Shown: piece by piece, positions 5,581 through 23,496 of the stretch
How positions within the stretch are numbered: position 1 is the stretch's first letter
Layout of the letters: each line of letters begins with the position of its first letter
Source of the DNA: Demequina silvatica
GTDB lineage: Bacteria > Actinomycetota > Actinomycetes > Actinomycetales > Demequinaceae
Direction of reading: 5' to 3'
DNA: 64,000 bases
Assembly (NCBI RefSeq): GCF_000971215.1
Contig: NZ_BBMA01000003.1
Span: 186,001 to 250,000 of the forward strand
Notes under the pieces: generated by a model
Told to the model about the DNA's origin: nothing
Database searches by the model: none
What the model saw: only the letters and a program-made list of their open reading frames with translations
Made by a program: the position numbers and the translations under genes

Positions 5581-5644
5581 TCCCCGCACCCGGGTGACGG
5601 GGGACGATGCGCCGGCCGCCGCATCGTCCCGCCGCACCCGGGCG
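5581..5644. repeat. 64-bp palindromic repeat, copy 1 (contains GGACGATGCG and its complement)
   Basis: This intergenic element differs from 23433-23496 at one of 64 positions. It carries GGGGGACGATGCG facing CGCATCGTCCC across a short GC spacer, so it can form a hairpin extended by outer CCCGGG arms. It resembles a REP/BIME-style repeat in architecture, but I do not recognise the family. Confidence 0.8.
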
Positions 5645-5701
5645 GGGGGGTCCGGTGGGCGACGAAACATCGCGCGCGTCGAGACGTAACACGGCGTTTA
5701 C

Positions 5702-5715
5702 CTATCGTCCGATAG
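5702..5715. promoter_or_regulatory. TetR-type operator 1 (before the carboxylase gene)
   Basis: CTATCG-TC-CGATAG is a perfect inverted repeat with a 2-bp centre. It overlaps a candidate -10 (TAGAGT, 5713-5718) placed 6 nt before the ATG at 5725, so binding would block a leaderless transcript. Near-identical palindromes precede 10898 and 14276, and a TetR gene lies in the same locus. Confidence 0.75.
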
Positions 5716-5724
5716 AGTCCCCGC

Positions 5725-8700
5725 ATGATGACCCAGACGACCCCGCGAACTGTCATGGTGGCGAACCGCGCCGAGATCGCGTGCCGCATCTTCCGCTCGG
5801 TCACGGCGTGGGGCGGCACCTCGCTCGGCGTGTACACCGACGACGACCGCGGCAGCCTCCACATCGAGCAGGCCGACCGGGTGGTGCGGCTGGAGCGCCG
5901 CGGTGACCTGGACCCGTACCTCGATGCGCAGCAGCTCATCGAGGTCGCCCTCGCGCACGGCGTGTGGGGCATCCATCCCGGCTACGGCTACCTCTCCGAG
6001 AACCCCGGCTTCGCGGCCGCGGTGGAGGCCGCGGGGCTGGTCTTCATCGGGCCCCGCCCGGAGCAGATCGCGCTGTTCGGCGACAAGCAGGCGGCACGCG
6101 AGCGGGCGATCTCCGCGCGCGTTCCCACCTCCGCGGCGACGCCGGAGCTGAGCGACGCGGAGGACGCGCGGGCGCGGATCGCGGAGATCGGGCTGCCCGT
6201 GATCGTGAAGGCGGCCGCCGGCGGCGGCGGCAAGGGCATGGCCGTGGTGCGCGCGCTCGACGAGGTGGCCGACGCGTACGAGGGCGTCGCCCGCATCGCC
6301 GCCGTGGTCGGCGGCGGCGTGTTCGCGGAGCGCTACATCGAGCGCGCCCGGCACGTCGAGGTCCAGATCTTCGGCGACGGCGACGGCACCGTGGTGACGC
6401 TGGGCGACCGCGACTGCACGCTGCAGCGTCGCAACCAGAAGGTGGTCGAGGAGGCGCCCGCGTTCGGACTCGCGCCCGACGTGCGGGAGCGGCTCCACGC
6501 GACGGCCCGCGAGCTGGGCGCGAGCGTCGGGTACCGCAGCGCCGGCACCGTCGAGTTCGTGCTGGACTCCGACACCGGCGAGGCGTCCTTCCTCGAGATC
6601 AACACGCGCCTCCAGGTCGAGCATCCCGTCACCGAGGCCGTCACCGGCGTGGACCTGGTGGAGTGGATGATCCGCCTCGCGGCGGGCGACTCGAGCTTCC
6701 TCGCGCCGTACGCCGCGACCGGTTCCGTCCCTGTCTCCGGCGCGGCCGTCGAGAGCCGCGTCTACGCCGAGGACCCCGTCGCGGACTTCCGCCCCAGCCC
6801 CGGCACGGTGACCCACGTCGAGCTGCCCGAGGGCGCGCGTGTCGACACGTGGGTGCGCTCCGGCACCGAGGTGGGCATGCGCTTCGACCCCATGCTGGCC
6901 AAGGTCGTCACGGCGGGGGCGGACCGCGCCGAGGCGTGGGTGCGACAGGCGGAGGCGCTGGACGCGACCCGCATCGACGGCGTGCACACCAACCTCGCTT
7001 TGCTACGGAGGATCGCGGGCGACCCGGTGGTCGCGGAGGGTGCGCACACCACCGCGAGCCTGGGCGCAGAGATCACCGCGCCGGCGGGAGGGATCCGCGT
7101 CGAGGACGCCGGATTCCTCACCACCGTCCAGGAGGGTCCCGGCCGGACCGGGTTGTGGCACATCGGCGTGCCGCCGTCGGGCCCCATGGACGACCGCAGC
7201 TTCGCGCTCGGCAACCGCATCCTGGGCAACGCCCCCGGCACCGCGGGCCTCGAGTGCACCGTGACGGGGCCGTCGCTGCGCATGTCCCGCGACGCGCGTG
7301 TGTGCGTTACCGGCGCGCCCGTGCCGGTCACGGTCGACGGCCGCGCCGTGCCGCAGTGGGAGGCGATCGAGGTCCCCGCTGGCTCCGTGCTGACGGTGGG
7401 CCGGGTGGAGGCGGGCCTGCGCGCGTACGTCCTGGTGAGCGGCGGCATCGACGTGCCCGAGTACCTGGGCTCGCGGGCGACGTTCACGCTGGGACGCTTC
7501 GGCGGCCACGCCGGCCGCGCGCTGCACGCGGGCGACGAGCTGCCGCTCGCGCCGGGAGCCGGTGCGGCCGTTCCGGTCGGGGCGGAGGTGGAGGTGCAGG
7601 TCGAGGTGGAGGTCGAGCGTCCCGCGTTCGGCACCTCGTGGGAGATCGGGGTGCTCGACGGGCCGCACAGCGCGCCGGACTTCTTCACGCCCGAGGACGT
7701 CGACACGATCCTCTCCGCCGCCTACGCGGTGCACTTCAACTCCGACCGCACCGGCGTGCGGCTGGTGGGCCCCAAGCCCTCCTGGGCGCGCGCCGACGGC
7801 GGCGAGGCCGGCCTCCACCCGTCCAACATCCACGACACCCCGTACTCGGTGGGCGGCATGGACTTCACCGGGGACACCCCGGTGCTGCTCGGGCCCGACG
7901 GGCCCAGCCTCGGCGGGTTCGTCACCCCCGTCACCGTCGCGAAGGGGGAGCGGTGGAAGCTCGGCCAGCTCGCGGCGGGCGACCAGGTGCGGTTCGTGCG
8001 GCTCGAGCCCGCGATCCCCGAGCAGCCGGGCGCCCCGCGCGGCGTGCTCGCCGACCGCGACGGCGTGGTGGTGCGCCGCCAGAGCGACGACAGCCTGCTG
8101 ATCGAGCTGGGCCCGCAGGAGCTCGACCTCATGCTCCGGGCGCGCGTCCACGTGCTCCAGCAGCGCGTGCGGGACGCGGCGCTGCCGGGCCTGCGCGACC
8201 TCACCCCCGGCATCCGGTCGCTCCAGGTCACATTCGAGGACCCCGCCCACGCGAACCGCGAGGCGCTCGAGCGGCTCCTCGCGCTCGCGGCGGACGTCGC
8301 GGGGGCCGAGGACCTGGTGGTCCCGAGCCGCCACGTCCGCCTGCCCATGTCGTGGGACGACCCGGCGACGCGCGAGGCGATCGCCCGCTATGAGGCGGGC
8401 GTCCGCGACGATGCTCCGTGGAACCCGTGGAACATCGAGTTCATCCGGCGGGTCAACGGCCTGGAGAGCGTCGACGAGGTCTACCGCACGCTCTTCGAGG
8501 CGGAGTACCTGGTGCTGGGCCTCGGTGACGTGTACCTGGGCGCCCCGGTCGCCACGCCGCTCGACCCGCGGCACCGGCTGGTCACCACCAAGTACAACCC
8601 CGCCCGCACCTGGACGGCGGAGAACTCGGTCGGCATCGGCGGCGCGTACCTGTGCATCTACGGCATGGAGGGCCCGGGCGGCTACCAGTTCGTGGGGCGC

Positions 8701-9285
8701 ACCACGCAGGTGTGGGACCGGTGGGCGTCCTTCGCGGGAGCCGACCGCGCGGTCGACGGCTCGCGCCCCTGGCTGCTCGACTTCTTCGACCGCATCACCT
8801 GGTACCCCGTCGAGGCCGACGAGCTGCTGCGCCTGCGCGCCGACTTCTCCGCGGGCCTGTGGCGCCCCGAGATCACCGAGGGCGAGCTCTCTCTCGCCGA
8901 CCACGCGCGGTTCCTCGACGACAACGCGGAGTCGATCTCGCGCTTCCGGACGGGACAGCGCCGCGCGTTCGCGGAGGAGCGCGACCGCTGGACCGCGGCG
9001 GGGGAGTTCGACCGCGACGTCGAGCCGGCCGCGACCGAGCCGCCGCCGGCGCTCGCTGAGGGCTGCGTGGGCGTCGAGGCGCCCTTCGCGGCCAACGTGT
9101 GGAAGGTGCTCGTGTCGGAGGGGCAGCGGGTCGAGGCGGGGCATACCGTCGCGGTCGTGGAGGCGATGAAGATGGAGACCAAGGTTTTCGCGGCGCATGC
9201 CGGGACCGTCGAGGCGGTGCTCGCGCCCGCGGGTGCCACCGTCGCACCGGGAGACGCGATCGTCGCGCTCCGGACGGAGGCCTGA
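5725..9285 (+). CDS. Biotin-dependent urea/guanidine carboxylase
   Basis: A 1186-residue multidomain enzyme with: a biotin carboxylase domain (about 1-450; ATP-grasp loop GGGGKGM near 164-170, EINTRLQVEHPVTE near 291-304); a KipA-like AHS2 domain (from about 455, GPGRTGLWHIGVPPSGPMDD); a KipI-like AHS1 domain (roughly 770-980); and a C-terminal biotinyl domain with the biotinylated lysine in EAMKMET at about residue 1149. It carboxylates urea or guanidine using ATP and bicarbonate. Many bacterial members of this family were shown to prefer guanidine. The neighbouring carboxyguanidine deiminase subunits and a separate allophanate hydrolase favour that here, but substrate residues in the AHS domains need alignment. 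The start fits a leaderless mRNA under a TetR operator. Confidence 0.9.
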   Translation: MMTQTTPRTVMVANRAEIACRIFRSVTAWGGTSLGVYTDDDRGSLHIEQADRVVRLERRGDLDPYLDAQQLIEVALAHGVWGIHPGYGYLSENPGFAAAVEAAGLVFIGPRPEQIALFGDKQAARERAISARVPTSAATPELSDAEDARARIAEIGLPVIVKAAAGGGGKGMAVVRALDEVADAYEGVARIAAVVGGGVFAERYIERARHVEVQIFGDGDGTVVTLGDRDCTLQRRNQKVVEEAPAFGLAPDVRERLHATARELGASVGYRSAGTVEFVLDSDTGEASFLEINTRLQVEHPVTEAVTGVDLVEWMIRLAAGDSSFLAPYAATGSVPVSGAAVESRVYAEDPVADFRPSPGTVTHVELPEGARVDTWVRSGTEVGMRFDPMLAKVVTAGADRAEAWVRQAEALDATRIDGVHTNLALLRRIAGDPVVAEGAHTTASLGAEITAPAGGIRVEDAGFLTTVQEGPGRTGLWHIGVPPSGPMDDRSFALGNRILGNAPGTAGLECTVTGPSLRMSRDARVCVTGAPVPVTVDGRAVPQWEAIEVPAGSVLTVGRVEAGLRAYVLVSGGIDVPEYLGSRATFTLGRFGGHAGRALHAGDELPLAPGAGAAVPVGAEVEVQVEVEVERPAFGTSWEIGVLDGPHSAPDFFTPEDVDTILSAAYAVHFNSDRTGVRLVGPKPSWARADGGEAGLHPSNIHDTPYSVGGMDFTGDTPVLLGPDGPSLGGFVTPVTVAKGERWKLGQLAAGDQVRFVRLEPAIPEQPGAPRGVLADRDGVVVRRQSDDSLLIELGPQELDLMLRARVHVLQQRVRDAALPGLRDLTPGIRSLQVTFEDPAHANREALERLLALAADVAGAEDLVVPSRHVRLPMSWDDPATREAIARYEAGVRDDAPWNPWNIEFIRRVNGLESVDEVYRTLFEAEYLVLGLGDVYLGAPVATPLDPRHRLVTTKYNPARTWTAENSVGIGGAYLCIYGMEGPGGYQFVGRTTQVWDRWASFAGADRAVDGSRPWLLDFFDRITWYPVEADELLRLRADFSAGLWRPEITEGELSLADHARFLDDNAESISRFRTGQRRAFAEERDRWTAAGEFDRDVEPAATEPPPALAEGCVGVEAPFAANVWKVLVSEGQRVEAGHTVAVVEAMKMETKVFAAHAGTVEAVLAPAGATVAPGDAIVALRTEA

Positions 9286-9286
9286 G

Positions 9287-10114
9287 ATGGCCGCCTCGCT
9301 CGAGGGACCCCTCCCCGTCACCGGCGCCCCGCTCGCCCTCCACCCGTTCGTGGTCGGCTACGAGCCCATGCGCGAGTCCATGTCCGTGCACGGCGGCGAC
9401 CCGGCCCGGCACCTCCTGGAGCCGGTGACGGCCGTCGCGGTCGAGTACGTCGACGGCTGGGTGCTGCTCGACACGGGCTTCAACGTCGCGGTGGTGCGCG
9501 ATCCCGAGCGCCGCCGCGAGGTCTTCAACTACGACAGCTACACCGCGGTGGTGCCGCTGGGCGACCCGCTGCTGGACGCGGTGGCCGGAGCGGGCCTCGC
9601 CTGGGACCGCCTGGCCGGGTGCGCCATCAGCCACATCCACCTCGACCACACCGGCGGCATCCGCCACGTGCCCGCGGGGGTGCCCGTCATCCTCCAGCGC
9701 CGGGAGCTCGAGTGGCTCGAGTCGGGCGCCGGCATCCGCGACGTGGTGCTGCCCACCGACGTGACCGACGCGGGGGAGGACGTGCGCGCGATCGACGGCG
9801 AGACCCTCCTCGCGCCCGGGCTCACCGCGCTGGACACGCGCGGCCACACGCCCGGCCACCAGTCCTTCCGCATCGAGCTCGCCTCGGGGCGCACGGTGGT
9901 CCTCGCGTGCGACGCCGCGGACCTGGTCGACAACCTCGACAGCCGGCGGCGCTGCTCCGTGGTGCCGGTGCCCGGCGCGGAGGACGCGGCGCAGGAGGCC
10001 GTGGAGCGCCTCGCCGCGATGCGGGGCGACGGCGTCGAGGTGTGGCCGGGCCACGACCCCGAGTTCGGGCCGTGGGTCGCGACGATGCGCGGGGAGCGCG
10101 TGCGGGTCGAGTGA
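9287..10114 (+). CDS. MBL-fold metallohydrolase (N-acyl-homoserine-lactonase-like family)
   Basis: A 275-residue metallo-beta-lactamase-fold hydrolase. The dinuclear metal motif HIHLDH is at about residue 115, and GHTPGHQ, an aspartate in ACDAAD and a late histidine in WPGHD supply the remaining ligands. The ATG starts one base after the carboxylase stop, so the two genes are translationally coupled. Family members open lactone or other cyclic ester/amide rings, but the role here is unknown; the tight coupling suggests a part in the same nitrogen-compound pathway rather than quorum quenching. It converges on the TetR gene, with 22 bp between their stops. Confidence 0.8.
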   Translation: MAASLEGPLPVTGAPLALHPFVVGYEPMRESMSVHGGDPARHLLEPVTAVAVEYVDGWVLLDTGFNVAVVRDPERRREVFNYDSYTAVVPLGDPLLDAVAGAGLAWDRLAGCAISHIHLDHTGGIRHVPAGVPVILQRRELEWLESGAGIRDVVLPTDVTDAGEDVRAIDGETLLAPGLTALDTRGHTPGHQSFRIELASGRTVVLACDAADLVDNLDSRRRCSVVPVPGAEDAAQEAVERLAAMRGDGVEVWPGHDPEFGPWVATMRGERVRVE

Positions 10115-10136
10115 CCCCCGCGCGGGGCCGGGTGGG

Positions 10137-10775
10137 TCAGCGGCGCGCGGCGAGGATGCGCAGCGTCGCCTGCTCGATGCCGTCCGCGACAGTCTCGGCG
10201 TCCAGTCGCGGATCGTCGGCGCGGCGTAGGATCACGCCCTCGACCAGGGAGAACAGCAACGCGGCCGTCGCGGCCGGGTCGTCGACGTCGGCCCGGCCCG
10301 CGGCGATCGACCGCCGCAGCAGCGCGCCGTACGCGCCCACCAGCTCCTGGCGCAGCGCCTGGAACGTGCCGAACATGGGTTCGCTGGTCTCGGGCAGCAG
10401 GTAGAGCGCGCCGATGTTCGACGGCCCGGACGCGAGCAGGTGCACGTCGAAGCGGATGAGCGCCAGCAGCTGCTCGAGCGGGTCCGTGGAGGTGTCCGCC
10501 AGCAGCTCGCGCGCCTTGTCGATCGAGGGCCGCGCCGTCTCGATCAGCAGCTCCTTGAGCATCGCCGCCTTGTTGGGGAAGTGGTAGTACAGCGACGGCT
10601 GCTTGATGTCGACCGCGGCCGAGATCTGCCGCGTGGTGGTCGCCGCGTACCCCTGCTCGACGAAGAGCCGGGCCGCCGCGTCCAGGATGCGCTCGCGTCC
10701 CACGGGCTCCTTGCCGTGCGGGCGCGACCGACGCGGGGCGTCGGTGCGGGTCGAGGCGGTATCGGCGTTCGTCAT
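10137..10775 (-). CDS. TetR-family repressor of the guanidine/urea locus
   Basis: A 212-residue regulator with an N-terminal helix-turn-helix (ERILDAAARLFVEQGY, TTTRQISAAV, SLYYHFPNKAAML) and a helical ligand-binding domain. It lies between the carboxylase unit and the divergent cgdA unit, where a local regulator would be expected. Three palindromes of one type (5702, 10876, 14206) stand before the three transcription units around it, so it is the natural candidate to bind them. The effector is unknown; guanidine, a guanidino compound or a pathway intermediate would be logical. About 25 basic or polar residues precede the HTH; a later start is possible. Confidence 0.85.
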   Translation of the reverse strand: MTNADTASTRTDAPRRSRPHGKEPVGRERILDAAARLFVEQGYAATTTRQISAAVDIKQPSLYYHFPNKAAMLKELLIETARPSIDKARELLADTSTDPLEQLLALIRFDVHLLASGPSNIGALYLLPETSEPMFGTFQALRQELVGAYGALLRRSIAAGRADVDDPAATAALLFSLVEGVILRRADDPRLDAETVADGIEQATLRILAARR

Positions 10776-10875
10776 GGCGGATCGCCCCCACAGTAGCGCC
10801 TGCGGACGGGCGGGAACGGGGCGCCTCGCACACGAAATTCAGCCGAAACAAAGCCCCCCTACACTCGCCTTGTAC

Positions 10876-10889
10876 CTATCGACCGAAAG
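10876..10889. promoter_or_regulatory. TetR-type operator 2 (before cgdA)
   Basis: CTATCG-AC-CGAAAG has a perfect left half and one mismatch in the right half relative to operator 1. It sits just downstream of a candidate -10 (TACACT, 10860-10865) and upstream of the Shine-Dalgarno AAAGGTGG of the GTG start at 10898, in the gap between the TetR gene and cgdA. Confidence 0.7.
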
Positions 10890-10897
10890 GTGGAGCC

Positions 10898-11761
10898 GTG
10901 ACCGATGACCGTGGAGCGGGACGCCGCTCGAGCACCGCGACGCTGGACCAGGCGCGCGACGACGCGCGGGGCCGCGCCGACACCGCCGTCGAGGCCATGC
11001 CGTACCTGCCGCCATCCGCCTCGCCGTACGCGCCCGCCGGCGTGGATCCGTCGACGCTCGTGTGGGCGGAGACCGTCGCCGGACCCGGCTACTCGCACAT
11101 GACGGTGGCCCGCGGCACGCGCATCCGCCTCGAGGACGTCGCCGGGGACGCGTGCGCCCACGTGGTGGTGCTCAGCGCGCTCAACCCGGGGGAGCGGCTC
11201 AACGTCGCCGACACTCAGAAGATCCCGTGGCAGGCGTACCTGGGTGCCGGCCACCCGCTGCTGTCGGGCGACGGCCGCGTCCTCGCGACCGTGGTCGCCG
11301 ACGCCGCGGGCGGTCACCACGACGCGTTCTGCGGCGTCACCACCCTCGCCGGCAACATCGAGCGCTACGGCGCGGGCGCCGCGCACACCGCCACCGCGGC
11401 GGGCCGCGAGCTACTGGTGCTCGCCGCGGCCAAGGAGGGCCTGACGCCCCGCGACCTGCCGCCAAGCGTGTCCTTCTTCAAGGGCGTGAGGGTCGCCGCC
11501 GACGGCGCCCTCGAGTGGACGGGCGACGGCGGCGCGGGCGCGAGCGTCGACCTGGTCGCCGAGATGCCCCTCACCGTGCTCGTGGCGAACGCCGCCCACC
11601 CGCTGGACCCCGCCGAGGGCTACCGCACGGGGCCCCTGCGCGTCCACGCCTGGGCCGCCGCCGCATCGTCCCCCTCCGATCCCTGGTGGACCGCGACGCC
11701 CGAGCGCACCCGCGCGTACCTCAACACCGACCAGCACCTGCTCGCGAGGGGGATCCGATGA
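10898..11761 (+). CDS. cgdA: Carboxyguanidine deiminase subunit A (DUF1989, urea-carboxylase-associated protein 1)
   Basis: A 287-residue DUF1989 protein, formerly annotated urea amidolyase-associated protein 1. With CgdB it forms the deiminase that converts carboxyguanidine to allophanate and ammonia. Visible family features are the cupin-like beta core and the HHDAFCGVTTLAGN segment, whose His/Cys residues correspond to the metal-site region in the family. The C-terminal Pro/Ala tail is long; one GGACGATGCG-family motif is embedded near its end (11662-11671). The GTG start has a good Shine-Dalgarno. The stop overlaps the next start (ATGA), so cgdA-cgdB-atzF are coupled. The A/B assignment is by length and order. 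Confidence 0.85.
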   Translation: MTDDRGAGRRSSTATLDQARDDARGRADTAVEAMPYLPPSASPYAPAGVDPSTLVWAETVAGPGYSHMTVARGTRIRLEDVAGDACAHVVVLSALNPGERLNVADTQKIPWQAYLGAGHPLLSGDGRVLATVVADAAGGHHDAFCGVTTLAGNIERYGAGAAHTATAAGRELLVLAAAKEGLTPRDLPPSVSFFKGVRVAADGALEWTGDGGAGASVDLVAEMPLTVLVANAAHPLDPAEGYRTGPLRVHAWAAAASSPSDPWWTATPERTRAYLNTDQHLLARGIR

Positions 11762-12438
11762 CCGTCACCTGGGCCACGCACGAGGCCGACTACTTCGACC
11801 GTTCCACCGCCTACCTGCCGGGCGCCACCGTGCTCGACCACGAGATCGCGCCGCGCGAGGGCTGGTCCGGCGTGGTGCGCGCCGGCCACGTGCTCACGCT
11901 GGTCGACGTGGGCGGCAACCAGTCGGGCGACTGCCTCATCTACGACGCCGCCGACCACGAGGTGCGGTACAGCGCGCAGGCGACGCTGGTCGCGCAGCGG
12001 CACGCCTACCTGGTCGACGGCTCGGTGCTGCTCTCGAACGAGGGCGACCCGCTCATGACGATCGTGGGCAACGAGGTCGACCGCCAGGACACCATCGGTG
12101 GCGCCTGCTCCAAGGAGTCCAACACGCTCCGGTACGGGCACCACACCCTGTTCCACCACGCGTGCCGCGAGAACTTCCTGCTCGAGGGCGCCAAGCACGG
12201 CCTGGGCCCGCGCGACCTCGTGTCGAACATCAACTGGTTCATGAACGTGCCGGTGGAGGCGGACGGGACGCTCGGGATCGTGGACGGCATGTCCGCGCCG
12301 GGCAAGCGCGTCGCGCTCCGCGCCGAGCGCGACGTGCTGGTGGTGCTCTCCAACTGCCCGCAGGTCAACAACCCGTGCAACGACTTCAACCCCACGCCCC
12401 TGCGCGTCATCGTCACGGACCCGGCGGTGGAGGCGTGA
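11758..12438 (+). CDS. cgdB: Carboxyguanidine deiminase subunit B (DUF1989, urea-carboxylase-associated protein 2)
   Basis: A 226-residue DUF1989 paralogue of the preceding protein. The core motif is GGACSKESNTLRYG followed by HHACRENF, with conserved cysteines and histidines expected to bind metal, and a C-terminal NNPCNDFNPTPLRV block. It is the partner subunit for deimination of carboxyguanidine to allophanate. It begins at the ATGA overlap with cgdA and ends in a GTGA overlap with atzF, indicating fixed stoichiometry and one mRNA. The pairing of two DUF1989 genes with a carboxylase and a free-standing allophanate hydrolase is the hallmark of bacterial guanidine degradation. Confidence 0.87.
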   Translation: MTVTWATHEADYFDRSTAYLPGATVLDHEIAPREGWSGVVRAGHVLTLVDVGGNQSGDCLIYDAADHEVRYSAQATLVAQRHAYLVDGSVLLSNEGDPLMTIVGNEVDRQDTIGGACSKESNTLRYGHHTLFHHACRENFLLEGAKHGLGPRDLVSNINWFMNVPVEADGTLGIVDGMSAPGKRVALRAERDVLVVLSNCPQVNNPCNDFNPTPLRVIVTDPAVEA

Positions 12439-14183: not shown

Positions 14184-14205
14184 CACGGGCAGCGACCGAA
14201 TGTAA

Positions 14206-14219
14206 CTATTGACCGATAG
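14206..14219. promoter_or_regulatory. TetR-type operator 3 (before the ABC importer)
   Basis: CTATTG-AC-CGATAG has a perfect right half and one mismatch in the left half relative to operator 1. It is 56 bp upstream of the GTG start of the substrate-binding protein, in the gap after atzF, implying a separate regulated promoter for the transport and hydrolase genes. A candidate -10 (TAGGTT, 14217-14222) overlaps it. Confidence 0.7.
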
Positions 14220-14275
14220 GTTCGCCGTACCGTTCCCCCCAACGGTCCCCCGAACCCTCATCGAAGGAGCCAGCA

Positions 14276-15859
14276 GTGAACCGCCGCACCACCTTCGCCC
14301 TCGCCGGAGCAGCCGCTCTGGCGCTCGGGCTCACCGCCTGCTCGAGCGCCGAGGAGTCGCTGCCCGGTCAGTCGGCCGGCGCGTCCGGCGCCTCGGACGT
14401 CGACACCACGCTCGACATGGGCCTCTCCGCCGACATCTCCGCGCCCGACCCGAGCAGCGCGTACAACGGCTCCGAGATGAACCTGGTCCTCGCGGCCTAC
14501 GAGGGTCTCGTCAAGTACGCGACCGGCACCGAGGAGGCGGAGATCGTGCCGTCGCTCGCGACCGAGTGGACCGTGTCCGAGGACGGCCTCACCTACACGT
14601 TCACGCTGCGCGAGGGCGTGACCTTCGCCGACGGCACGCCGTTCACCTCCGCGGCGGTGCAGCCGTCCGTCGACCGCCTGCTCACCGCGGGCGAGTCCGG
14701 CCCCGCGTACCTGGTGGGCGGCATCGCCTCCATCGAGACCCCGTCCGACACCGAGGTGGTCTTCACCCTCGAGGCGCCGAACGACGCGTTCCTCGACTAC
14801 CTCGCGTCGCCGTTCGGGCTCAAGATGATCTCGCCCGACGCGCTCACCGCCCACGGCGACGACGCGGAGTGGTTCGCCGCGAACTCCGCCGGCACCGGCC
14901 CGTTCCAGTACGGCACCTTCGACGAGGGCGTCAGCTACGAGCTCACCGCCAACGACTCCTACTGGGGAGACACCGGCGGCTACGAGTCGATCGAGTTCCA
15001 CATCCTCGACTCCACCAACACCATCCAGCTCCAGCTGGAGAGCGGCGAGCTCGACGGCTACATCGGCTCCGCCAACAAGCCCCTGTTCGACGCCCTCAGC
15101 CAGAACGCGGACCTCAACGCCTACACCTACCCGTCGATGATGGCGCCGGTGGTCTACCTCAACCCCAACCGCGAGGCGCTCGCCGACGTCGAGACCCGTC
15201 AGGCCCTCCTGGCCGGCGTGGACTGGGACGGCATCGTGCAGTCCGTCTACGGCGATCTCGGCGCCACCTCCACGGGCGTGTTCCCCTCGACCCTGGTCGA
15301 GTCGGACCTCAACCAGACCGGCATCGAGTTCGACGCGGACGCGCTCGCCGCGCTCGCCGAGGGCGACCTCGCGGGTCAGAAGATCTCCATCAACTACCCG
15401 TCCTACGTCCCCGGCGGCCAGGACATCGCGGACAACCTCGCGGCGCAGCTCAACACCGTGGGGATCACCGCGGAGTCGGTCGGCCTCGAGTCCAGCGCGT
15501 ACTGGTCGACGGTCTTCGACCCCGAGAAGGCGCCCGACATCACGCTCATGAGCGTCTTCCCCGACGCCGCCCACCCCGACGCCTGGGCGCGCCTGCTGTA
15601 CTCGTCCAGCGGCGGCCTCAACCTCTTCTACCCCGAGATCGAGGGCCTCGACGCGGTCCTCGACGAGGCCATCGAGACCGGCGACCACGCCCTGTACGGC
15701 GAGATCACGGACCTCATCACCGAGTCGGCCGACTACTACACGGTCGCGGACCTCAAGGTCTCGGCCGCCTTCCAGGCGGGGATCACGGGCGCCGAGTCGG
15801 CGAGCTACCCGCTGCTGGGCATCACGTTCGACTTCACCCAGCTCACCCCGGGTCAGTAG
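14276..15859 (+). CDS. ABC transporter substrate-binding lipoprotein, family 5 (peptide/nickel type)
   Basis: A 527-residue extracellular solute-binding lipoprotein: signal peptide ending in LTAC (lipidated Cys22), then a family 5 fold (EIVPSLATEWTVSEDGLTYTF and EGVTFADGTPF are diagnostic). This family binds peptides, nickel chelates and assorted cations or guanidino compounds. AAGGAG precedes the GTG start. The TetR operator upstream and the ABC genes downstream tie it to the guanidine locus, so a guanidino or ureide ligand is likely, though the ligand cannot be read from sequence. An 18-bp intercistronic hairpin follows the stop, probably raising expression of this gene over the ATPase. Confidence 0.9.
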   Translation: MNRRTTFALAGAAALALGLTACSSAEESLPGQSAGASGASDVDTTLDMGLSADISAPDPSSAYNGSEMNLVLAAYEGLVKYATGTEEAEIVPSLATEWTVSEDGLTYTFTLREGVTFADGTPFTSAAVQPSVDRLLTAGESGPAYLVGGIASIETPSDTEVVFTLEAPNDAFLDYLASPFGLKMISPDALTAHGDDAEWFAANSAGTGPFQYGTFDEGVSYELTANDSYWGDTGGYESIEFHILDSTNTIQLQLESGELDGYIGSANKPLFDALSQNADLNAYTYPSMMAPVVYLNPNREALADVETRQALLAGVDWDGIVQSVYGDLGATSTGVFPSTLVESDLNQTGIEFDADALAALAEGDLAGQKISINYPSYVPGGQDIADNLAAQLNTVGITAESVGLESSAYWSTVFDPEKAPDITLMSVFPDAAHPDAWARLLYSSSGGLNLFYPEIEGLDAVLDEAIETGDHALYGEITDLITESADYYTVADLKVSAAFQAGITGAESASYPLLGITFDFTQLTPGQ

Positions 15860-15874
15860 GACCCACTCCGAACA

Positions 15875-15916
15875 GGCCTCCCGTGGCGGCGTCCCCTCAC
15901 GCCGCCACGGGAGGCC
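15875..15916 (+). terminator. Perfect 18-bp intercistronic hairpin between binding protein and ATPase genes
   Basis: The arms 15875-15892 and 15899-15916 are exact complements around a CCCCTC loop. There is no T-tract and a ribosome binding site follows at once, so it is more likely an mRNA-stabilising or partial-termination element than an operon end. Confidence 0.7.
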
Positions 15917-15939
15917 GCCCCTCGCGAAGGAGAGGCACC

Positions 15940-17641
<1,702 letters not shown>

Positions 17642-17658
<17 letters not shown>

Positions 17659-18520
17659 GCGCACGCTCAAGCGGCTCGAGCGGCCCACGCCCGACCGCCC
17701 CGACGGCGCGTGGTCGGCCCTCGGGGTCGGGGAGAAGCTCTCGCTGGTGGCCGTCGCGGTCACCGTGCTGGTCGCGCTCGTCGGGCCGGCGCTCATGCCG
17801 TACAGCGCGATCATCCCCTCGGGCGAGCAGCTCCTGCCCCCGCTGTCTCCCGGGCACGTGCTCGGCACGGACGTGCTCGGGATGGACATGGCGACCCGGC
17901 TGGTCGCTGGCATGCAGCGCAGCCTCTTCGCCGCCGTCGTGGTGACCCTGATCTCCGCAGCGATCGGCACGCTGATCGGCGTGGTCGCCGGCTTCAAGGG
18001 CGGCTGGCTCGACAGCGCGCTCATGCGCTTCACGGATCTGTTCCTCGCCTTCCCTGCGATGATCATCGCGATGGCGATCGCCGCCGCGATCGGCCAGTCC
18101 CTCGGCTCCGCGATGGTCGGCATCATCGTCGTGTGGTGGCCGCTGTACGCCCGCCTGGTGCGCGGCGAGGTGCGCCGGGCCGCCGCTCTTCCCCACGTCC
18201 AGGCGGCGCGGGTCGCGGGCGTCGGCGGCTGGAAGCTGCTGTGGCGCCACGTGGTGCCGGCGGTCACGCCCACCGTCGTGGTGACGGCGAGCCTCGACAT
18301 CGGCGCCGTCGTCATGACCCTCGCCGCGCTGTCCTTCATCGGCCTCGGCACCCCGGCGCCGGCGCCCGAGCTCGGCCGCATGGCCTCGGACGGCATGAAG
18401 TACTTCCTCAACGCGTGGTGGGTCGCGGTCCTCCCGAGCCTCGCGATCGGCCTCCTGGCCTTCGTCTTCAACTATGCCGGCGACGCCCTGCGCGTCATGC
18501 TCCGGCGGACGGGTGTGTGA
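17642..18520 (+). CDS. ABC transporter permease, DppC-like
   Basis: A 292-residue integral membrane subunit of the peptide-type importer. It has an N-terminal cytoplasmic segment, a first transmembrane helix near residues 30-55, the PLSPGHVLGTDVLGMDMATR segment typical of DppC/OppC, and about five further helices. The EAA loop is near ARLVRGEVRRAAALPHVQAA. It overlaps the ATPase gene by 17 bp and the next permease follows within a few bases, so the transporter genes are tightly coupled. It is named C-type because of the conserved GTD region. Confidence 0.92.
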
Positions 18521-18522
18521 CC

Positions 18523-19521
18523 ATGCTGGTCTTCGTCGCCAAGCGCCTCGGCTCGCTCGTGGTGGTGCTGTTCTTCCTCACCCTGCTGGTCTTCACCCTC
18601 GGCAAGGTCGCGGACTCCGACCCCGTCCGCACGTACGTCGGCGTGAACGCGAGCGCGGAGGCCGTCGAGGCCGCGCGCGAGGAGCTCGGGCTCGACAACC
18701 CGATCCCCGTGCAGTTCGGGTCGTTCGTCGCGGGCGCGGTCCAGGGCGACTTCGGCATCTCGCTGTCCTCCAAGCGCCCCATCGCGGACGAGCTGTCGAC
18801 CCGCCTGCCCGCCACGCTCGAGCTCGCGGGCTGGGCCCTCGCCCTCACCGTCGTGATCGGCGTCTCGCTCGCGTCGCTCTACTCGCGACCGGGCCGGTTC
18901 GGGGCGTTCATGCGCTTCGTGTTCTTCTCCGCGGCGTCCGCGCCGTCGTTCCTCATCGCGATGCTCTCGGTGCTCGTGTTCTACAAGTGGCTGGACGGCG
19001 CGCTCCCGGCCGCGGGTCGCTCCTCGTACGGTCCCTACGAGGACGCAACCGGCTTCTACGTCCTCGACGGCATCCTGCACGGCAGCCCGACCTACACGTG
19101 GGACGCGATCCAGCACCTGCTGCTGCCCGCGTTCGCCGCGGCGGTCGGCTCCGGCGTCGCCCTGGCGCGCGTGCTCGCCGACGGCATCTCCTCCTCGCTG
19201 GGCTCGCCGTGGGCGCGGACCGCCCGCGCGCTCGGCGAGCGCGAGGGCACCGTCCTCAGGCGTCACGCGCTGCGCAACGCCTCCTCGCCCGCGCTGTCCC
19301 TGCTCGCGGTGCAGGCGGGCTTCATGGTCTCGAGCCTCGTGGTGGTGGAGCAGGTGTTCTCGTGGAACGGCCTCGGCTCCTACCTCTCCGGCGCGATCGG
19401 CGTCGGCGACTTCCCCGCCATCGCGGCCGTGTGCCTCATCCTCGGCGCCGTGTACGTGATCCTCAACACCCTGGTCGACGTCGCTCTCGCGGCGGTCGAC
19501 CCCCGCGTCCGGCTCTCCTGA
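18523..19521 (+). CDS. ABC transporter permease, DppB-like
   Basis: A 332-residue membrane subunit with the B-type start (FVAKRLGSLVVVLFFLTLLVF), the DNPIPVQFG and GDFGISLSSKRPI motifs, and about six transmembrane helices. The permease order (C before B, both after the fused ATPase) is unusual for Dpp/Opp operons but seen in some actinobacteria. The ATG is 2 bp after the upstream stop; a GTG at 18517 overlapping that stop is an alternative start. It completes the importer whose binding protein is at 14276. Confidence 0.92.
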   Translation: MLVFVAKRLGSLVVVLFFLTLLVFTLGKVADSDPVRTYVGVNASAEAVEAAREELGLDNPIPVQFGSFVAGAVQGDFGISLSSKRPIADELSTRLPATLELAGWALALTVVIGVSLASLYSRPGRFGAFMRFVFFSAASAPSFLIAMLSVLVFYKWLDGALPAAGRSSYGPYEDATGFYVLDGILHGSPTYTWDAIQHLLLPAFAAAVGSGVALARVLADGISSSLGSPWARTARALGEREGTVLRRHALRNASSPALSLLAVQAGFMVSSLVVVEQVFSWNGLGSYLSGAIGVGDFPAIAAVCLILGAVYVILNTLVDVALAAVDPRVRLS

Positions 19522-19540
19522 TCTCGGAAAGGACCCCCTC

Positions 19541-20206
19541 ATGCCACTTCAGGTGACAGACATCACCCCCTCCGACACCCTCGACGTGGTCGGCAACGCC
19601 GTCCTCGTGGTGGTCGACATCCAGGGCGGCGGCCAGCCGTCGTCGTTCGGCGCGGACAAGCCCGGTTACATGCCCGGCCGGCCCGAGCGCAACGCGAAGG
19701 CGGTCGACATGGTCGCCCGCTTCCGCGCGAAGGGCGTGCCCGTGGTCTTCATCCAGGAGGTGCACAAGCCCTCCCTGATCGACATCGGCCGCGAGCTCGA
19801 CGGCAACGAGAACGTCCACTGCGTCGAGGGCGACCCGCGCACCGAGCTCCACCCCGGGCTCGAGCCGCGCCGCGAGGAGTACCTCATCCAGAAGCGCCGC
19901 TACAGCGCGTTCTTCGGATCCGAGCTCGACATCGTTCTCAAGGGGTACAAGGCCGAGACCCTCATCCTCATCGGCGGGATGACGGACGTGTGCATCCACT
20001 ACACCGCGGTCGACGCGCACCAGCTCGACTACCGCTTCCGCACCGTCACCGACATGGTGATCGGCTCCGGCCAGAAGCTCCACGACGCCGCGCTGCGCGC
20101 CATGAAGTACCTGCAGCGCGACGCCCTCGTGTCGCTCGAGGCGGTCGACGCCTGGCTCGACGCGCTGCCGCAGCCCACCCCCGAGGCCTCGAAGGAGGAC
20201 GCATGA
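19541..20206 (+). CDS. Isochorismatase-fold cysteine hydrolase 1 (biuret/guanylurea-hydrolase-like)
   Basis: A 221-residue isochorismatase-like hydrolase with the full Asp-Lys-Cys triad: D26 in VVVDIQ, K118 in IQKRRYS, C151 in TDVCIHYT. Family members cleave small amides such as N-carbamoylsarcosine, biuret and guanylurea. Biuret hydrolase yields allophanate and guanylurea hydrolase yields guanidine, and both products would feed the enzymes encoded upstream. It sits after the importer genes with GGAAAGGA as ribosome binding site and overlaps the next, paralogous gene by 4 bp. The actual amide substrate is not determinable here. Confidence 0.85.
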   Translation: MPLQVTDITPSDTLDVVGNAVLVVVDIQGGGQPSSFGADKPGYMPGRPERNAKAVDMVARFRAKGVPVVFIQEVHKPSLIDIGRELDGNENVHCVEGDPRTELHPGLEPRREEYLIQKRRYSAFFGSELDIVLKGYKAETLILIGGMTDVCIHYTAVDAHQLDYRFRTVTDMVIGSGQKLHDAALRAMKYLQRDALVSLEAVDAWLDALPQPTPEASKEDA

Positions 20207-20811
20207 ACATCCACGGCTCCACCGTTCTCGTGGTGGTCGACTTCCAGGGCGGCCCGATGGACGGCCCGATGTCGAAGGACGACCCGTTCGACATCCCCGC
20301 GCAGCGGGACAAGGCCGTCGCGATGGTCGCGGAGGCGCGCGCGAAGGGCGTGCCCGTGGTGTGGATCCAGGAGGTCCACAAGCCGCACCTCACCGACATC
20401 GGCCGCGAGCTCGACGGCTCCGAGGGCCCGCACTGCATCGAGGGCAACAAGTACACCGAGCTGGCCGAGGGCCTCGAGCCCACGCCCGACGAGTTCCACA
20501 TCCGCAAGCGCCGCTACAGCGGGTTCTTCGGCACCGAGCTCGACATCGTGCTCAAGGCGTACAAGGCGGAGACCCTGGTGCTCATCGGCGGCTTCACCGA
20601 CATCTGCATCCTCTACACCGCGGTCGACGCGCACCAGCGCGACTTCCACCTCAACGTGGTGACCGACGTGGCGATGGGCTCCTCGCTCCAGGCGCACGAC
20701 GACGCGCTCGAGATGATCCACTACCTCCAGCACGGCTCGCTGGTCACGTCCGAGGAGACGATGCGCTGGCTGGGTTCGCTCGAGGGCGCGGCCGTCCCCG
20801 CCGGCGCGTGA
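20203..20811 (+). CDS. Isochorismatase-fold cysteine hydrolase 2 (tandem paralogue)
   Basis: A 202-residue paralogue of the preceding protein, sharing long near-identical stretches (IQEVHKP, DIGRELDG, KRRYS-FFG-ELDIVLK, YKAETL-LIGG, YTAVDAHQ). The triad is intact: D13, K102 and C135 (TDICILYT). It lacks the first protein's extra N-terminal 13 residues. Tandem duplication with both active sites kept suggests either a hetero-oligomer or two related amide substrates. It starts in an ATGA overlap and ends in a GTGA overlap with the MFS gene, so all three are coupled. Confidence 0.85.
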   Translation: MNIHGSTVLVVVDFQGGPMDGPMSKDDPFDIPAQRDKAVAMVAEARAKGVPVVWIQEVHKPHLTDIGRELDGSEGPHCIEGNKYTELAEGLEPTPDEFHIRKRRYSGFFGTELDIVLKAYKAETLVLIGGFTDICILYTAVDAHQRDFHLNVVTDVAMGSSLQAHDDALEMIHYLQHGSLVTSEETMRWLGSLEGAAVPAGA

Positions 20812-22049
20812 GCGGGGTCTCGCGGCGCGCCCTGCTGACGCTCTGGGTGCTCGCGGGCGCGGTGTTCGCGGCGACGCTCGGCTCGATGCTCGTGCCGGGC
20901 GTCCTGTCCGCGTTCTCGGAGGAGACCGGCATCTCGCTCGCCGACGTCGGGCGGTCGAACGCGGTGTTCGGCCTCGCGTACGCCGTCGCGGCGCCGCTCA
21001 TCGCGTGGAGCGTGCGCCGGCTCGAGCCGTACACGGTGATGATGGTCGCACTGCCCCTGGTGGCGGCCGCTGCCGTCGCCGTGTCCCAGGTGGACACCGT
21101 GTCGCAGCTGATGGTCGCCCGCGTCGCGCAGGCCGTCGCGGTCGCCGGCGTGGTGCCCATGTGCACCGTGCACGCCGGCAGCATCGTCGCGGGCGCCCAC
21201 CGTTCGCGCGCGCTGTCGATCTCCTTCACCGGCATGGTCGCCTCGTCGCTCGTCGGCGCGCCGCTGGGCAACCTGCTCGGCGCGACCGTGGGTGCGCGGG
21301 CCGCCTTCGTGATGGTCGGCACGCTCGCGGTGCTCGTCTGCGTCGCGGTCGCGGCGCTGCGCCCCTGGCAGGCGGACCTGCGGCTCGCGGGCGCGGAGGC
21401 GCGCCGGCGCGAGGGCGGCGCCGCCGTCGTGTGGGCCTCGGCGGCGCTCGTGCTCGGTGCGACGCTGGCGACGGCGCTTCTCGAGGGCGCGGCGACTGGC
21501 GGGCTCAACACGTTCATCGCACCGTTCCTGGAGAGCACCACGGGCGCGTCCGGAACGCTGCTGTCCGCGCTGCTGCTCTGCTACGGGATCGCCGGCCTCG
21601 CCGGCAACGGGGTCCTCGGCGGACTGGCCGACCGGCTGGGACCGGCCCGGATCCTCACGGCGCTCGGCGTCGCGGCGGCGGTCTCCGTGGGCGGCCTCGC
21701 GCTGGTATCCGGCCCGCTGCCCGCCGCGCTGCTGCTGCTCGCGTGGGGATTCTGCTCGTGGGCGATCAACCCGCCGTTGCAGGCCCTCATCGTCGGGCAC
21801 TCGGGCCGTCACGTGAACGTGGTGGTCGGCATCAACTCGTCGCTGATCTACACCGGCACCTCGATCGGCGCGGCGCTGGCGAGCGCGCAGGTGGACCAGG
21901 GCCGGCTCGCGCAGCTGCCGTACCTCTCCGCGGTGCTGTTCCTCGCCTGTGCCGCCACCGCGGGCGTGGCATGGGCGGCGACGGCGCGAGCGCGCAGGCG
22001 CGCGGCGGCCGCGGAGGAGCGGGCGACCCAGGAGCCCGCGCGGGCCTGA
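20808..22049 (+). CDS. MFS transporter
   Basis: A 413-residue major facilitator with about 12 transmembrane helices, a loop resembling the family signature after helix 2 (AWSVRRLEP) and a second copy between helices 8 and 9 (GGLADRLGPARI). The layout resembles the YdhP/AraJ-like drug-H+ antiporter group. It is last in the importer-hydrolase operon and starts with GTG overlapping the hydrolase stop. Efflux of excess substrate or a toxic intermediate such as guanidine is a reasonable role, but this is inference from position. Confidence 0.85.
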   Translation: MSGVSRRALLTLWVLAGAVFAATLGSMLVPGVLSAFSEETGISLADVGRSNAVFGLAYAVAAPLIAWSVRRLEPYTVMMVALPLVAAAAVAVSQVDTVSQLMVARVAQAVAVAGVVPMCTVHAGSIVAGAHRSRALSISFTGMVASSLVGAPLGNLLGATVGARAAFVMVGTLAVLVCVAVAALRPWQADLRLAGAEARRREGGAAVVWASAALVLGATLATALLEGAATGGLNTFIAPFLESTTGASGTLLSALLLCYGIAGLAGNGVLGGLADRLGPARILTALGVAAAVSVGGLALVSGPLPAALLLLAWGFCSWAINPPLQALIVGHSGRHVNVVVGINSSLIYTGTSIGAALASAQVDQGRLAQLPYLSAVLFLACAATAGVAWAATARARRRAAAAEERATQEPARA

Positions 22050-23343: not shown

Positions 23344-23432
23344 GCGGGTGACCTCCGTGGGGTGGCGTCGCCGCGACCTCCGCGGGCTCCCGTCAGCCTA
23401 GCGAGCGATAGTTGCCGCCATGTTGCGGGGCC

Positions 23433-23496
23433 TCCCCGCACCCGGGTGACGGGGGACGATGCGCCGGCCGCCGCATCGTCCCGCCGTACCCGGGCG
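23433..23496. repeat. 64-bp palindromic repeat, copy 2
   Basis: Identical to 5581-5644 except for one C/T change (23487). Like copy 1 it lies between genes and holds the facing GGACGATGCG and CGCATCGTCC cores (23454-23463, 23472-23481). A further CCCGGGCG-TCG-CCCGGG extension follows on its right side, making a second small hairpin. Confidence 0.8.

What the first reader, a model, noticed from the sequence alone, without database searches (positions are those of the whole stretch)
5702..22049. Compact TetR-controlled guanidino-compound locus joining guanidine catabolism to two isochorismatase-fold hydrolases and a peptide-type importer
Seen: biotin carboxylase/AHS enzyme, two DUF1989 subunits, AtzF with its C-terminal domain, family 5 ABC importer, two cysteine hydrolases with intact Asp-Lys-Cys triads, and an MFS gene. 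Known: DUF1989 pairs (CgdAB) with such carboxylases and allophanate hydrolase degrade guanidine; biuret hydrolase and guanylurea hydrolase are isochorismatase-fold enzymes producing allophanate or guanidine. Inference: the locus encodes uptake of a larger compound (guanylurea, biuret or another guanidino/ureido molecule), release of guanidine or allophanate, and full mineralisation to ammonia. The importer-hydrolase module added to the guanidine pathway under one regulator is the novel part.
Basis: partly seen in the sequence, partly recalled or inferred. Interest (0 to 1): 0.8.

Follow-up and report, generated by a model that had tools for sequence, protein, structure and literature searches.

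The report
TetR regulon feeding guanidine breakdown
A Demequina-like actinobacterium carries a single-regulator gene set that seems to import an unidentified nitrogen-rich compound, trim it with several hydrolases and break the resulting guanidine down to ammonia; similar sets recur in other actinobacteria, which offers a way to look for a natural source of guanidine.

Summary
The window (a Demequina relative) encodes a guanidine carboxylase, the paired DUF1989 carboxyguanidine deiminase, allophanate hydrolase, a family-5 ABC importer, two isochorismatase-fold (IHL) cysteine hydrolases, an MFS protein and a TetR regulator.

'TetR-controlled' is now supported: one palindrome (ACCTATCGnCCGATAGGT) lies before the carboxylase, deiminase and importer genes and at no other place in the 2.9 Mb genome at up to 3 mismatches; a weaker copy precedes the amidohydrolase. 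In an unnamed genus (g22), 13 of 13 linked loci show a different palindrome before both the guanidine operon and the importer-hydrolase operon. There, genomes with the hydrolase carry DUF1989 more often (43 of 47 against 54 of 151).

Guanylurea or biuret as the substrate is not supported: the hydrolases are 26-31% identical to a proven guanylurea hydrolase and far below the BiuH cut-off. The substrate is unknown, and in four relatives DUF1989-AtzF genes have no carboxylase match beside them. Known pathway end, new upstream module: a new variant of a known kind.

The parts
5700..5717 (.). palindromic operator ACCTATCGTCCGATAGAG before the guanidine carboxylase gene
   Evidence: genome-wide only three such places at up to 3 mismatches. 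This promoter was seen in the window only; the relatives' loci do not reach it
5725..9285 (+). guanidine carboxylase (biotin carboxylase + CT_A_B + CT_C_D + BCCP); start at 5725 or 5728
   Evidence: Pfam; TIGR02712; Asp at both signature positions
   Evidence: PF00753; PDB AiiA lactonases; motifs
10137..10775 (-). TetR-family regulator
   Evidence: PF00440
10874..10891 (.). operator ACCTATCGACCGAAAGGT between TetR and the DUF1989 genes
   Evidence: at up to 3 mismatches in 9 of 9 loci that hold this promoter, the window included
10898..11761 (+). DUF1989 subunit, UAAP1 type (one half of carboxyguanidine deiminase CgdAB)
   Evidence: PF09347; TIGR03425
11758..12438 (+). DUF1989 subunit, UAAP2 type (other half of CgdAB)
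   Evidence: PF09347; TIGR03424
12435..14183 (+). allophanate hydrolase AtzF, amidase plus C-terminal AH_C domain
   Evidence: PF01425, PF21986; TIGR02713
14204..14221 (.). operator AACTATTGACCGATAGGT before the importer genes
   Evidence: 2 mismatches in 9 of 9 loci that hold this promoter, the window included
14276..15859 (+). family-5 ABC solute-binding protein
   Evidence: PF00496; PDB NikA/DppA relatives
15940..17658 (+). ABC ATPase with two fused ATPase domains
   Evidence: PF00005, two stretches; start
17642..18520 (+). ABC permease
   Evidence: PF00528
18517..19521 (+). ABC permease
   Evidence: PF00528 and PF19300
19541..20206 (+). IsoA: isochorismatase-fold cysteine hydrolase, triad D26/K118/C151
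   Evidence: PF00857; alignment; model pLDDT 83 and IHL fold matches
20203..20811 (+). IsoB: paralogue of IsoA with CIL in place of CIH after the catalytic Cys
20808..22049 (+). MFS transporter
   Evidence: PF07690
   Evidence: PF01979; PDB LlADH, ochratoxinase, Arg-carboxypeptidase Cc2672
23396..23413 (.). weaker operator GCCTAGCGAGCGATAGTT (4 mismatches) before the amidohydrolase
   Evidence: counterpart at 2-4 mismatches in 7 of the 8 relatives that hold this promoter

Best explanation
A catabolic regulon that takes up an unidentified nitrogen-rich amide (probably peptide-like or larger than urea or guanidine) with the family-5 ABC importer, breaks it down with metal-dependent hydrolases (the MBL-fold enzyme and the amidohydrolase) and the amide-cleaving IHL pair IsoA/IsoB, and ends in free guanidine. 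Guanidine is carboxylated with ATP and bicarbonate, deiminated by the DUF1989 pair to allophanate and hydrolysed by AtzF, giving three ammonia. The TetR protein represses the three or four transcription units through one palindrome until the compound or an intermediate binds it. Shown here: gene content, guanidine-type carboxylase signature, shared operator, conservation and co-occurrence. Inferred: the order of the hydrolytic steps, that guanidine is the product that joins the two halves, that the palindrome is TetR's, repression rather than activation, and the inducer. The genome's guanidine-III riboswitch sits elsewhere, before an SMR exporter gene, so the inducer of this locus is more likely the imported compound than guanidine itself.
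For: Carboxylase has Asp at the positions of K. lactis 1330 and 1584 that the literature requires of guanidine carboxylases. One palindrome at the carboxylase, DUF1989 and importer promoters, 3 places in 2.9 Mb at up to 3 mismatches (the reversed-pattern control gave 1 forward and 1 reverse hit); 0.06 expected in the window. The DUF1989 and importer sites recur in 7 Demequina loci and on MAG contigs. In unnamed genus g22, 13 of 13 linked loci have order DUF1989-DUF1989-carboxylase-AtzF | TetR | ABC-permeases-IHL-SBP-MBL (L126 ends before MBL), with a different palindrome before both operons in 13 of 13 (46 of 47 sites at up to 1 mismatch lie in those two promoters; 0.046 simulated per locus). 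Co-occurrence: g22 43 of 47 against 54 of 151, Fisher p 3.3e-12; class sample 8 of 12 against 62 of 381, p 1.9e-4. Of 8 further genomes with IsoA relatives that I asked for, 7 were held and 7 of 7 have DUF1989. No guanidine riboswitch in the window; a guanidine-III riboswitch 55 kb away precedes an SMR gene.
Against: No substrate is identified. The importer-hydrolase module sits without adjacent guanidine genes in Actinoplanes rectilineatus and two Kineosporia, and 4 of 47 g22 genomes with the hydrolase have no DUF1989, so its product need not be guanidine everywhere. In L092, L094, L134 and L135 the DUF1989-AtzF genes have no carboxylase match in the stretch held (rest of those genomes not searched). 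IHL relatives lie in other contexts (nitrile hydratase, ornithine cyclodeaminase, Rieske oxygenase). Fisher tests are not corrected for shared ancestry. The SBP has no close relative of known ligand. The carboxylase promoter could be examined in the window only.
Confidence: 0.65

Rival explanations
1. One reading: the imported compound is guanylurea, biuret or triuret, and IsoA/IsoB are the guanylurea or biuret/triuret hydrolases. A variant: an IHL cleavage of a guanylurea-like bond yields carboxyguanidine directly, so that the carboxylase is bypassed.
For: Guanylurea hydrolase is an IHL enzyme that feeds the guanidine carboxylase pathway in Pseudomonas, with ABC importer genes beside it on pMET-2 (PMC9800807 passages; annotation). 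Two IHL enzymes work in series on triuret and biuret (PMC7948467 passages; PMC12625717 passages). The IsoA model has BiuH and TrtA among its structural matches. For the variant: DUF1989-AtzF genes without a carboxylase match beside them in L092, L094, L134 and L135.
Against: IsoA and IsoB are 25.6% and 31.1% identical to the pMET-2 enzyme; BiuH model 52 and 58 bits against a cut-off of 370. The clade's RELDG loop (56 of 60 clade rows, RETDG in the other 4, 47 distinct sequences) is absent from the pMET-2 enzyme. I know of no role for a family-5 importer, an MBL enzyme or an amidohydrolase in guanylurea breakdown.
Confidence: 0.15
2. A general nitrogen-scavenging regulon: the importer, hydrolases and guanidine pathway handle separate nitrogen sources and are merely induced together.
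For: Standalone modules in Actinoplanes and Kineosporia; hydrolase without DUF1989 in 4 of 47 g22 genomes; in two g22 genomes whose parts are unlinked the DUF1989 genes follow an amino-acid-permease-family gene (L131, L136), so guanidine uptake there could be separate from the family-5 importer.
Against: At up to 3 mismatches the operator is confined to this one locus in the genome, not spread over nitrogen genes; the same partners recur in several families, and an MBL gene adjoins the carboxylase in the window and L096, follows AtzF in G328 and lies one gene from AtzF in Microbacterium indicum.
Confidence: 0.15
3. The carboxylase is a urea carboxylase and the locus is a urea amidolyase cluster.
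For: NCBIfam names it urea carboxylase (TIGR02712); PMC11410670 uses that same model for both enzymes.
Against: Aspartate at the position where K. lactis urea amidolyase has Asn1330; DUF1989 pair present, which acts on carboxyguanidine.
Confidence: 0.03

Closest known systems
Guanidine carboxylase / CgdAB / AtzF pathway (Schneider 2020, Sinn 2021; not read, seen as cited in PMC11410670 and PMC12186494)
   Same: All three enzymes, with the guanidine-type aspartates
   Different: TetR operator instead of a guanidine riboswitch; family-5 importer; linked IHL, MBL and amidohydrolase genes
Guanylurea pathway of Pseudomonas mendocina GU and MET (PMC9800807, passages)
   Same: An IHL hydrolase upstream of the guanidine pathway, with ABC importer genes near it on pMET-2
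   Different: IHL only 26-31% identical; sulfonate-type importer annotation and LysR regulator; in MET the guanidine genes are on the chromosome and the hydrolase on a plasmid
Triuret/biuret cluster trtA-biuH-atzF (PMC7948467, PMC12625717, passages)
   Same: Two related IHL hydrolases and AtzF in one locus
   Different: IsoA/IsoB fall far below the BiuH cut-off; no guanidine carboxylase in the clusters described in the passages read
Methylguanidine demethylation operon of Vreelandella (PMC12508155, abstract and passages)
   Same: Accessory enzymes that turn a larger guanidino compound into guanidine, placed in a guanidine carboxylase operon
   Different: Dioxygenase and lyase under a guanidine riboswitch, not hydrolases under TetR

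Membership tests
Guanidine carboxylase | Asp at K. lactis positions 1330 and 1584 (criteria in a PMC11410670 methods passage) | tested here: met
   alignment; motifs GMDFTGD and GLGDVYLG; criteria
Guanidine carboxylase | prefers guanidine over urea in vitro | not testable with these tools
   needs enzyme assay
Carboxyguanidine deiminase CgdAB | two adjacent DUF1989 subunits of UAAP1 and UAAP2 type | tested here: met
   TIGR03425 275.2/205.95 and TIGR03424 305.7/284.7 bits
Allophanate hydrolase AtzF | amidase plus AH_C domain, TIGR02713 above cut-off | tested here: met
Isochorismatase-like hydrolases (IHL) | PF00857 fold with Asp-Lys-Cys triad | tested here: met
   IsoA: fold; D26, K118, C151 invariant in 18 of 18 rows including IsoB
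Biuret hydrolase BiuH | NF050097 above cut-off 370 | tested here: not met
   52.2 and 58.2 bits
Triuret hydrolase TrtA | own sequence model or close identity to the proven enzyme | not tested
   only weak PDB sequence hits (6xix, 6xj4) and fold similarity were seen
Guanylurea hydrolase GuuH | close relation to a proven enzyme | tested here: not met
   25.6% and 31.1% identity to the pMET-2 enzyme (the two proven enzymes are 44.8% identical, PMC9800807 passage). The strain GU sequence was not at hand
Guanidine riboswitch-controlled guanidine operon | guanidine riboswitch before the genes | tested here: not met
   no such Rfam match in the window; guanidine-III lies 55 kb away
TetR regulon | shared palindrome at several promoters | tested here: met
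TetR regulon | binding of TetR to the palindrome and its inducer | not testable with these tools
   needs EMSA or footprinting

The most novel reading that the evidence does not exclude
An undescribed actinobacterial pathway, spread over several families, in which a natural guanidino (or guanidine-masking, such as 2-amino-heterocycle) amide is imported and hydrolysed to free guanidine or straight to carboxyguanidine, with IsoA/IsoB, the MBL enzyme and the amidohydrolase as its dedicated enzymes; its substrate would be a natural source of environmental guanidine.
Probability: 0.4. Interest if true: 0.8.

Novelty: new variant of a known kind. Interest (0 to 1): 0.6.

Why it matters
Guanidine-sensing riboswitches are widespread, yet a recent review calls guanidine's physiological significance elusive and lists only a few enzymes that make it (PMC12186494, abstract and passages). 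A regulon that ties a compound importer and hydrolases to guanidine breakdown gives a direct way to look for a natural precursor: purify the binding protein and the repressor and screen ligands. The shared operator also bounds the gene set sharply, which helps for an orphan pathway.

Tried and rejected
Urea carboxylase reading: rejected on the two aspartates. BiuH, RutB and nicotinamidase membership of the IHL pair: rejected on curated cut-offs. GuuH orthology: rejected on identity. Ligand of the importer from solved relatives: uninformative, best hits NikA, YliB and DppA below 100 bits. Substrate from gene neighbours of distant IHL relatives: led to several different contexts (nitrile hydratase in Gloeocapsopsis; ornithine cyclodeaminase, SugE and RidA in Roseovarius; phosphotriesterase-like and RidA genes in Streptomyces; Rieske oxygenase and glutamine-synthetase-like genes in G120, G199 and G328) and no single substrate. 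RutA-like monooxygenase in G328: its NCBIfam matches are all below cut-off, so a Rut-type ring cleavage is only an idea. Strong stem-loop before the carboxylase: a dispersed repeat, not a riboswitch. Sigma-70 promoter scan: 0 found. Second fold library pdb_via: not available. The phages and E. coli collections, the PHROGs and PADLOC libraries, and the viral contig scans were not used.


Full report
What is there. The window lies in an unnamed 2.9 Mb genome, contig C15:186001-250000; the closest IsoA proteins in named genomes are those of Demequina soli and D. phytophila, 98% identical. The genes run: guanidine carboxylase 5725-9285 (+), MBL-fold hydrolase 9287-10114 (+), TetR 10137-10775 (-), two DUF1989 genes 10898-11761 and 11758-12438 (+), AtzF 12435-14183 (+), SBP 14276-15859 (+), fused double ABC ATPase 15940-17658 (+), permeases 17642-18520 and 18517-19521 (+), IHL hydrolases IsoA 19541-20206 and IsoB 20203-20811 (+), MFS 20808-22049 (+), and an amidohydrolase 22054-23343 (-). 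Overlapping ends from the first DUF1989 gene to AtzF, from the ATPase through the permeases, and from IsoA to the MFS gene suggest operons (sequence; inference).

The carboxylase. It passes the urea carboxylase model TIGR02712, which the literature uses for both urea and guanidine enzymes. The Nature 2024 guanidine paper (PMC11410670, methods passage) requires Asp at K. lactis positions 1330 and 1584 for a guanidine carboxylase. In the alignment to K. lactis urea amidolyase 5i8i, residue 1330 is Asn in GAINFTGD and the window has Asp in GGMDFTGD; at the second position GLGD stands in the K. lactis urea carboxylase 3va7 and in the window (motif check; the 5i8i print is cut just before that point). 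The review PMC12186494 states the same Asp/Asn rule (passage). Of the 22 other carboxylase rows in hand (L087 and L129 are the same gene), 21 have Asp at the first position by motif search; the remaining one, L096, is a contig that begins after that position. With UAAP1, UAAP2 and AtzF above their curated cut-offs, the guanidine half of the locus is a standard guanidine carboxylase pathway.

The hydrolases. IsoA and IsoB are 58% identical to each other. The triad D26/K118/C151, the segment GRELDG and KRRYS are invariant in 18 of 18 aligned rows. In the 61-row set, of which the pMET-2 guanylurea hydrolase is one, 60 of the other 60 rows (47 distinct sequences) carry KRRYS and the Cys motif; 56 have RELDG and 4 roseobacters have RETDG. 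The seven IsoB rows of that set read CIL where IsoA reads CIH after the catalytic cysteine. A tree of 49 rows puts IsoA and IsoB in separate supported groups, each spanning Demequina, the MAG, Actinoplanes and Kineosporia, and IsoB also Microbacterium, so the pair is older than Demequina. AlphaFold model of IsoA: pLDDT 83, pTM 0.85; Foldseek finds IHL structures including BiuH, maleamate amidase and TrtA. The pair is not BiuH (52 and 58 bits, cut-off 370) and is 25.6% and 31.1% identical to the guanylurea hydrolase of P. mendocina MET (L099:20653-21288; the gene choice, the only cysteine hydrolase in the 50 kb of pMET-2 read and next to a nucleoside deaminase, rests on PMC9800807 passages and the record annotation).

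Two missed members. The MBL protein resembles AHL lactonases (best PDB hits AiiA-type, about 55 bits). Of 31 MBL rows in related loci (some are copies of one gene), 28 show SHxHxDH; the other three rows are two genes, one in L093 and one in G328 (L133 and L110), and L093 and L133 read THxHxDH. An MBL gene adjoins the carboxylase in the window and in L096, lies beyond TetR from AtzF in Microbacterium indicum (L093), follows AtzF in G328 (L133) and follows the SBP gene in g22. The amidohydrolase is closest in the PDB to the amide hydrolase LlADH, and also hits ochratoxinase and the L-arginine carboxypeptidase Cc2672 (names; that such enzymes cleave N-acyl amino acids is recalled). It is 53% identical to a gene 3 kb from the DUF1989 pair in M. 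indicum.

One regulon. The intergenic stretch between TetR and the first DUF1989 gene holds ACCTATCGACCGAAAGGT in the window and close variants in the related loci. With the symmetric form ACCTATCGnCCGATAGGT and up to 3 mismatches, the window has three places: 5700, 10874 and 14204, before the carboxylase, the DUF1989 genes and the SBP (0.06 expected from shuffles). The whole genome has no other (three forward and three reverse matches at the same three places; reversed-pattern control 1 and 1, so about one chance hit is to be expected). Counting the window, 7 Demequina loci and the MAG contigs L015 and L096, the DUF1989 site is found in 9 of 9 loci that hold that promoter and the SBP site in 9 of 9. 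A fourth, weaker site lies before the amidohydrolase: 4 mismatches in the window (23396) and 2-4 mismatches in 7 of the 8 relatives that hold that promoter (L006 lacks it at 4 or fewer). It keeps its place before the amidohydrolase in L005, L011 and L017, where that gene lies about 1.5 kb from the MFS gene. Related palindromes precede the SBP gene of the standalone modules in L007, L009 and L013 and the DUF1989 genes of L092 (2-4 mismatches); L012, L093 and the g22, G199, G120 and G328 loci scanned have none, and L100 has one inside a gene.

Independent lineage. In the class sample, 13 of 394 genomes have an IsoA relative at E up to 1e-35, the own genome included, and 71 of 394 have DUF1989. 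Without the own genome, 8 of 12 with IsoA have DUF1989 against 62 of 381 without (Fisher p 1.9e-4). Within one unnamed genus (g22 of family f12; I take it for mycobacteria-like, a guess), 47 of 198 have the hydrolase at E up to 1e-60 and 97 of 198 have DUF1989; 43 of 47 against 54 of 151 (p 3.3e-12, not corrected for ancestry). In 13 of the 41 hydrolase genomes for which a strong DUF1989 match was listed, the two lie 10.75-11.02 kb apart. All 13 were fetched: order DUF1989-DUF1989-carboxylase-AtzF | TetR | ABC-permease-permease-IHL-SBP-MBL in each, L126 ending before MBL. A different palindrome, CTGTCAnnTGACAG, lies in both the TetR-ABC and the DUF1989 promoter of 13 of 13; 46 of 47 sites at up to one mismatch are in those two stretches, against 0.046 expected per locus in simulated sequence. 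Two lineages with different operators but the same pairing is the strongest sign that the two halves act together. Where the parts lie apart the evidence is thinner: a single site at 1 mismatch is seen upstream of the operon of L131 and of L136, which begins with an amino-acid-permease-family gene, and L132 has its own TetR with sites at 1 and 2 mismatches. In these three loci the carboxylase match covers only the carboxyltransferase part.

Counter-evidence. Actinoplanes rectilineatus (L007) and two Kineosporia (L009, L013) have importer, hydrolases and TetR without guanidine genes beside them; the two Kineosporia genomes do have DUF1989 elsewhere (L007's genome was not held). Four of 47 g22 genomes with the hydrolase lack DUF1989 altogether, as do 4 of 12 in the class sample. 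In Actinoplanes sp. RD1 (L092, a 12 kb contig), Kineosporia mesophila (L094), G199 (L134) and G120 (L135) the DUF1989 and AtzF genes have no carboxylase match in the stretch held. IHL relatives sit in unrelated-looking contexts on plasmids. The substrate is therefore not fixed by genomics.

Riboswitch. Rfam finds no guanidine riboswitch in the window. The genome has one guanidine-III match at C15:130857-130920, directly upstream of an SMR-family gene (PF00893, 65 bits), the family of guanidine exporters; whether it is a Gdx was not tested. Guanidine-I, -II and -IV were searched in the window only. Guanidine sensing is thus present but placed on an exporter-family gene, and this locus uses another sensor.

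Verdict. The end of the pathway is known; the upstream module, its regulon and its distribution are, as far as my searches show, undescribed: searches for carboxyguanidine deiminase, guanidine carboxylase with ABC transporter and allophanate hydrolase, isochorismatase with guanidine, carboxylase and allophanate, guanidine with Mycobacterium and urea carboxylase, and Demequina with guanidine or urea carboxylase terms (20 of 112 listed) showed no title or abstract start that describes it. I read passages of seven papers, none in full, and the library lacks most subscription papers. The biuret/guanylurea guess is not supported.

Noticed in passing
G000:C15:130857-130920 (-), L113 3858-3921: Guanidine-III riboswitch (51.3 bits) directly upstream of an SMR-family exporter gene, 55 kb left of the window; guanidine sensing and guanidine catabolism are placed apart in this genome.
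   Followed up: partly
window 5582-5649 and 23441-23494: The same GC-rich palindromic repeat lies on both sides of the regulon; its 30-base core occurs at 8 places in the genome at up to 3 mismatches, so it is a dispersed repeat.
   Followed up: partly
L131:7473-9425, L132:9761-11731, L136:10821-12794: In these g22 genomes the guanidine-type carboxylase match has only the carboxyltransferase domains (CT_A_B, CT_C_D) and no biotin carboxylase part, a split form that would need a biotin carboxylase from elsewhere.
   Followed up: partly
L092, L094, L134, L135: DUF1989-DUF1989-AtzF genes with no carboxylase match in the stretch held; the carboxyguanidine would have to come from a carboxylase elsewhere or from another reaction.
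   Followed up: partly
L010 (Demequina iriomotensis) and L004 (D. phytophila): Mosaic identity to the window inside the locus: TetR 98-99.5% and DUF1989 89-96% but MBL 59% in both, and IsoA only 67% in L010, as if segments had been exchanged.
   Followed up: no
L102:7893-12118 (Roseovarius plasmid): An IHL relative in a row with a DMT transporter, an ornithine cyclodeaminase above its curated cut-off, a SugE-type SMR exporter, RidA and a second cyclodeaminase.
   Followed up: no
L106:4850-10274 (Gloeocapsopsis plasmid): An IHL relative beside nitrile hydratase and ABC importer genes, where it could act as the amidase after the hydratase.
   Followed up: no
L080 and L133 (G328), L081 and L134 (G199), L079 and L135 (G120): DUF1989-AtzF genes near RidA and phosphotriesterase-like genes; in G328 and G199 about 27-30 kb from Rieske-oxygenase, glutamine-synthetase-like, ALDH and IHL genes, in G120 on another contig.
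   Followed up: partly
L017 (Demequina litorisediminis): Most genes of the locus appear in several pieces, possibly sequencing errors in that assembly.
   Followed up: no
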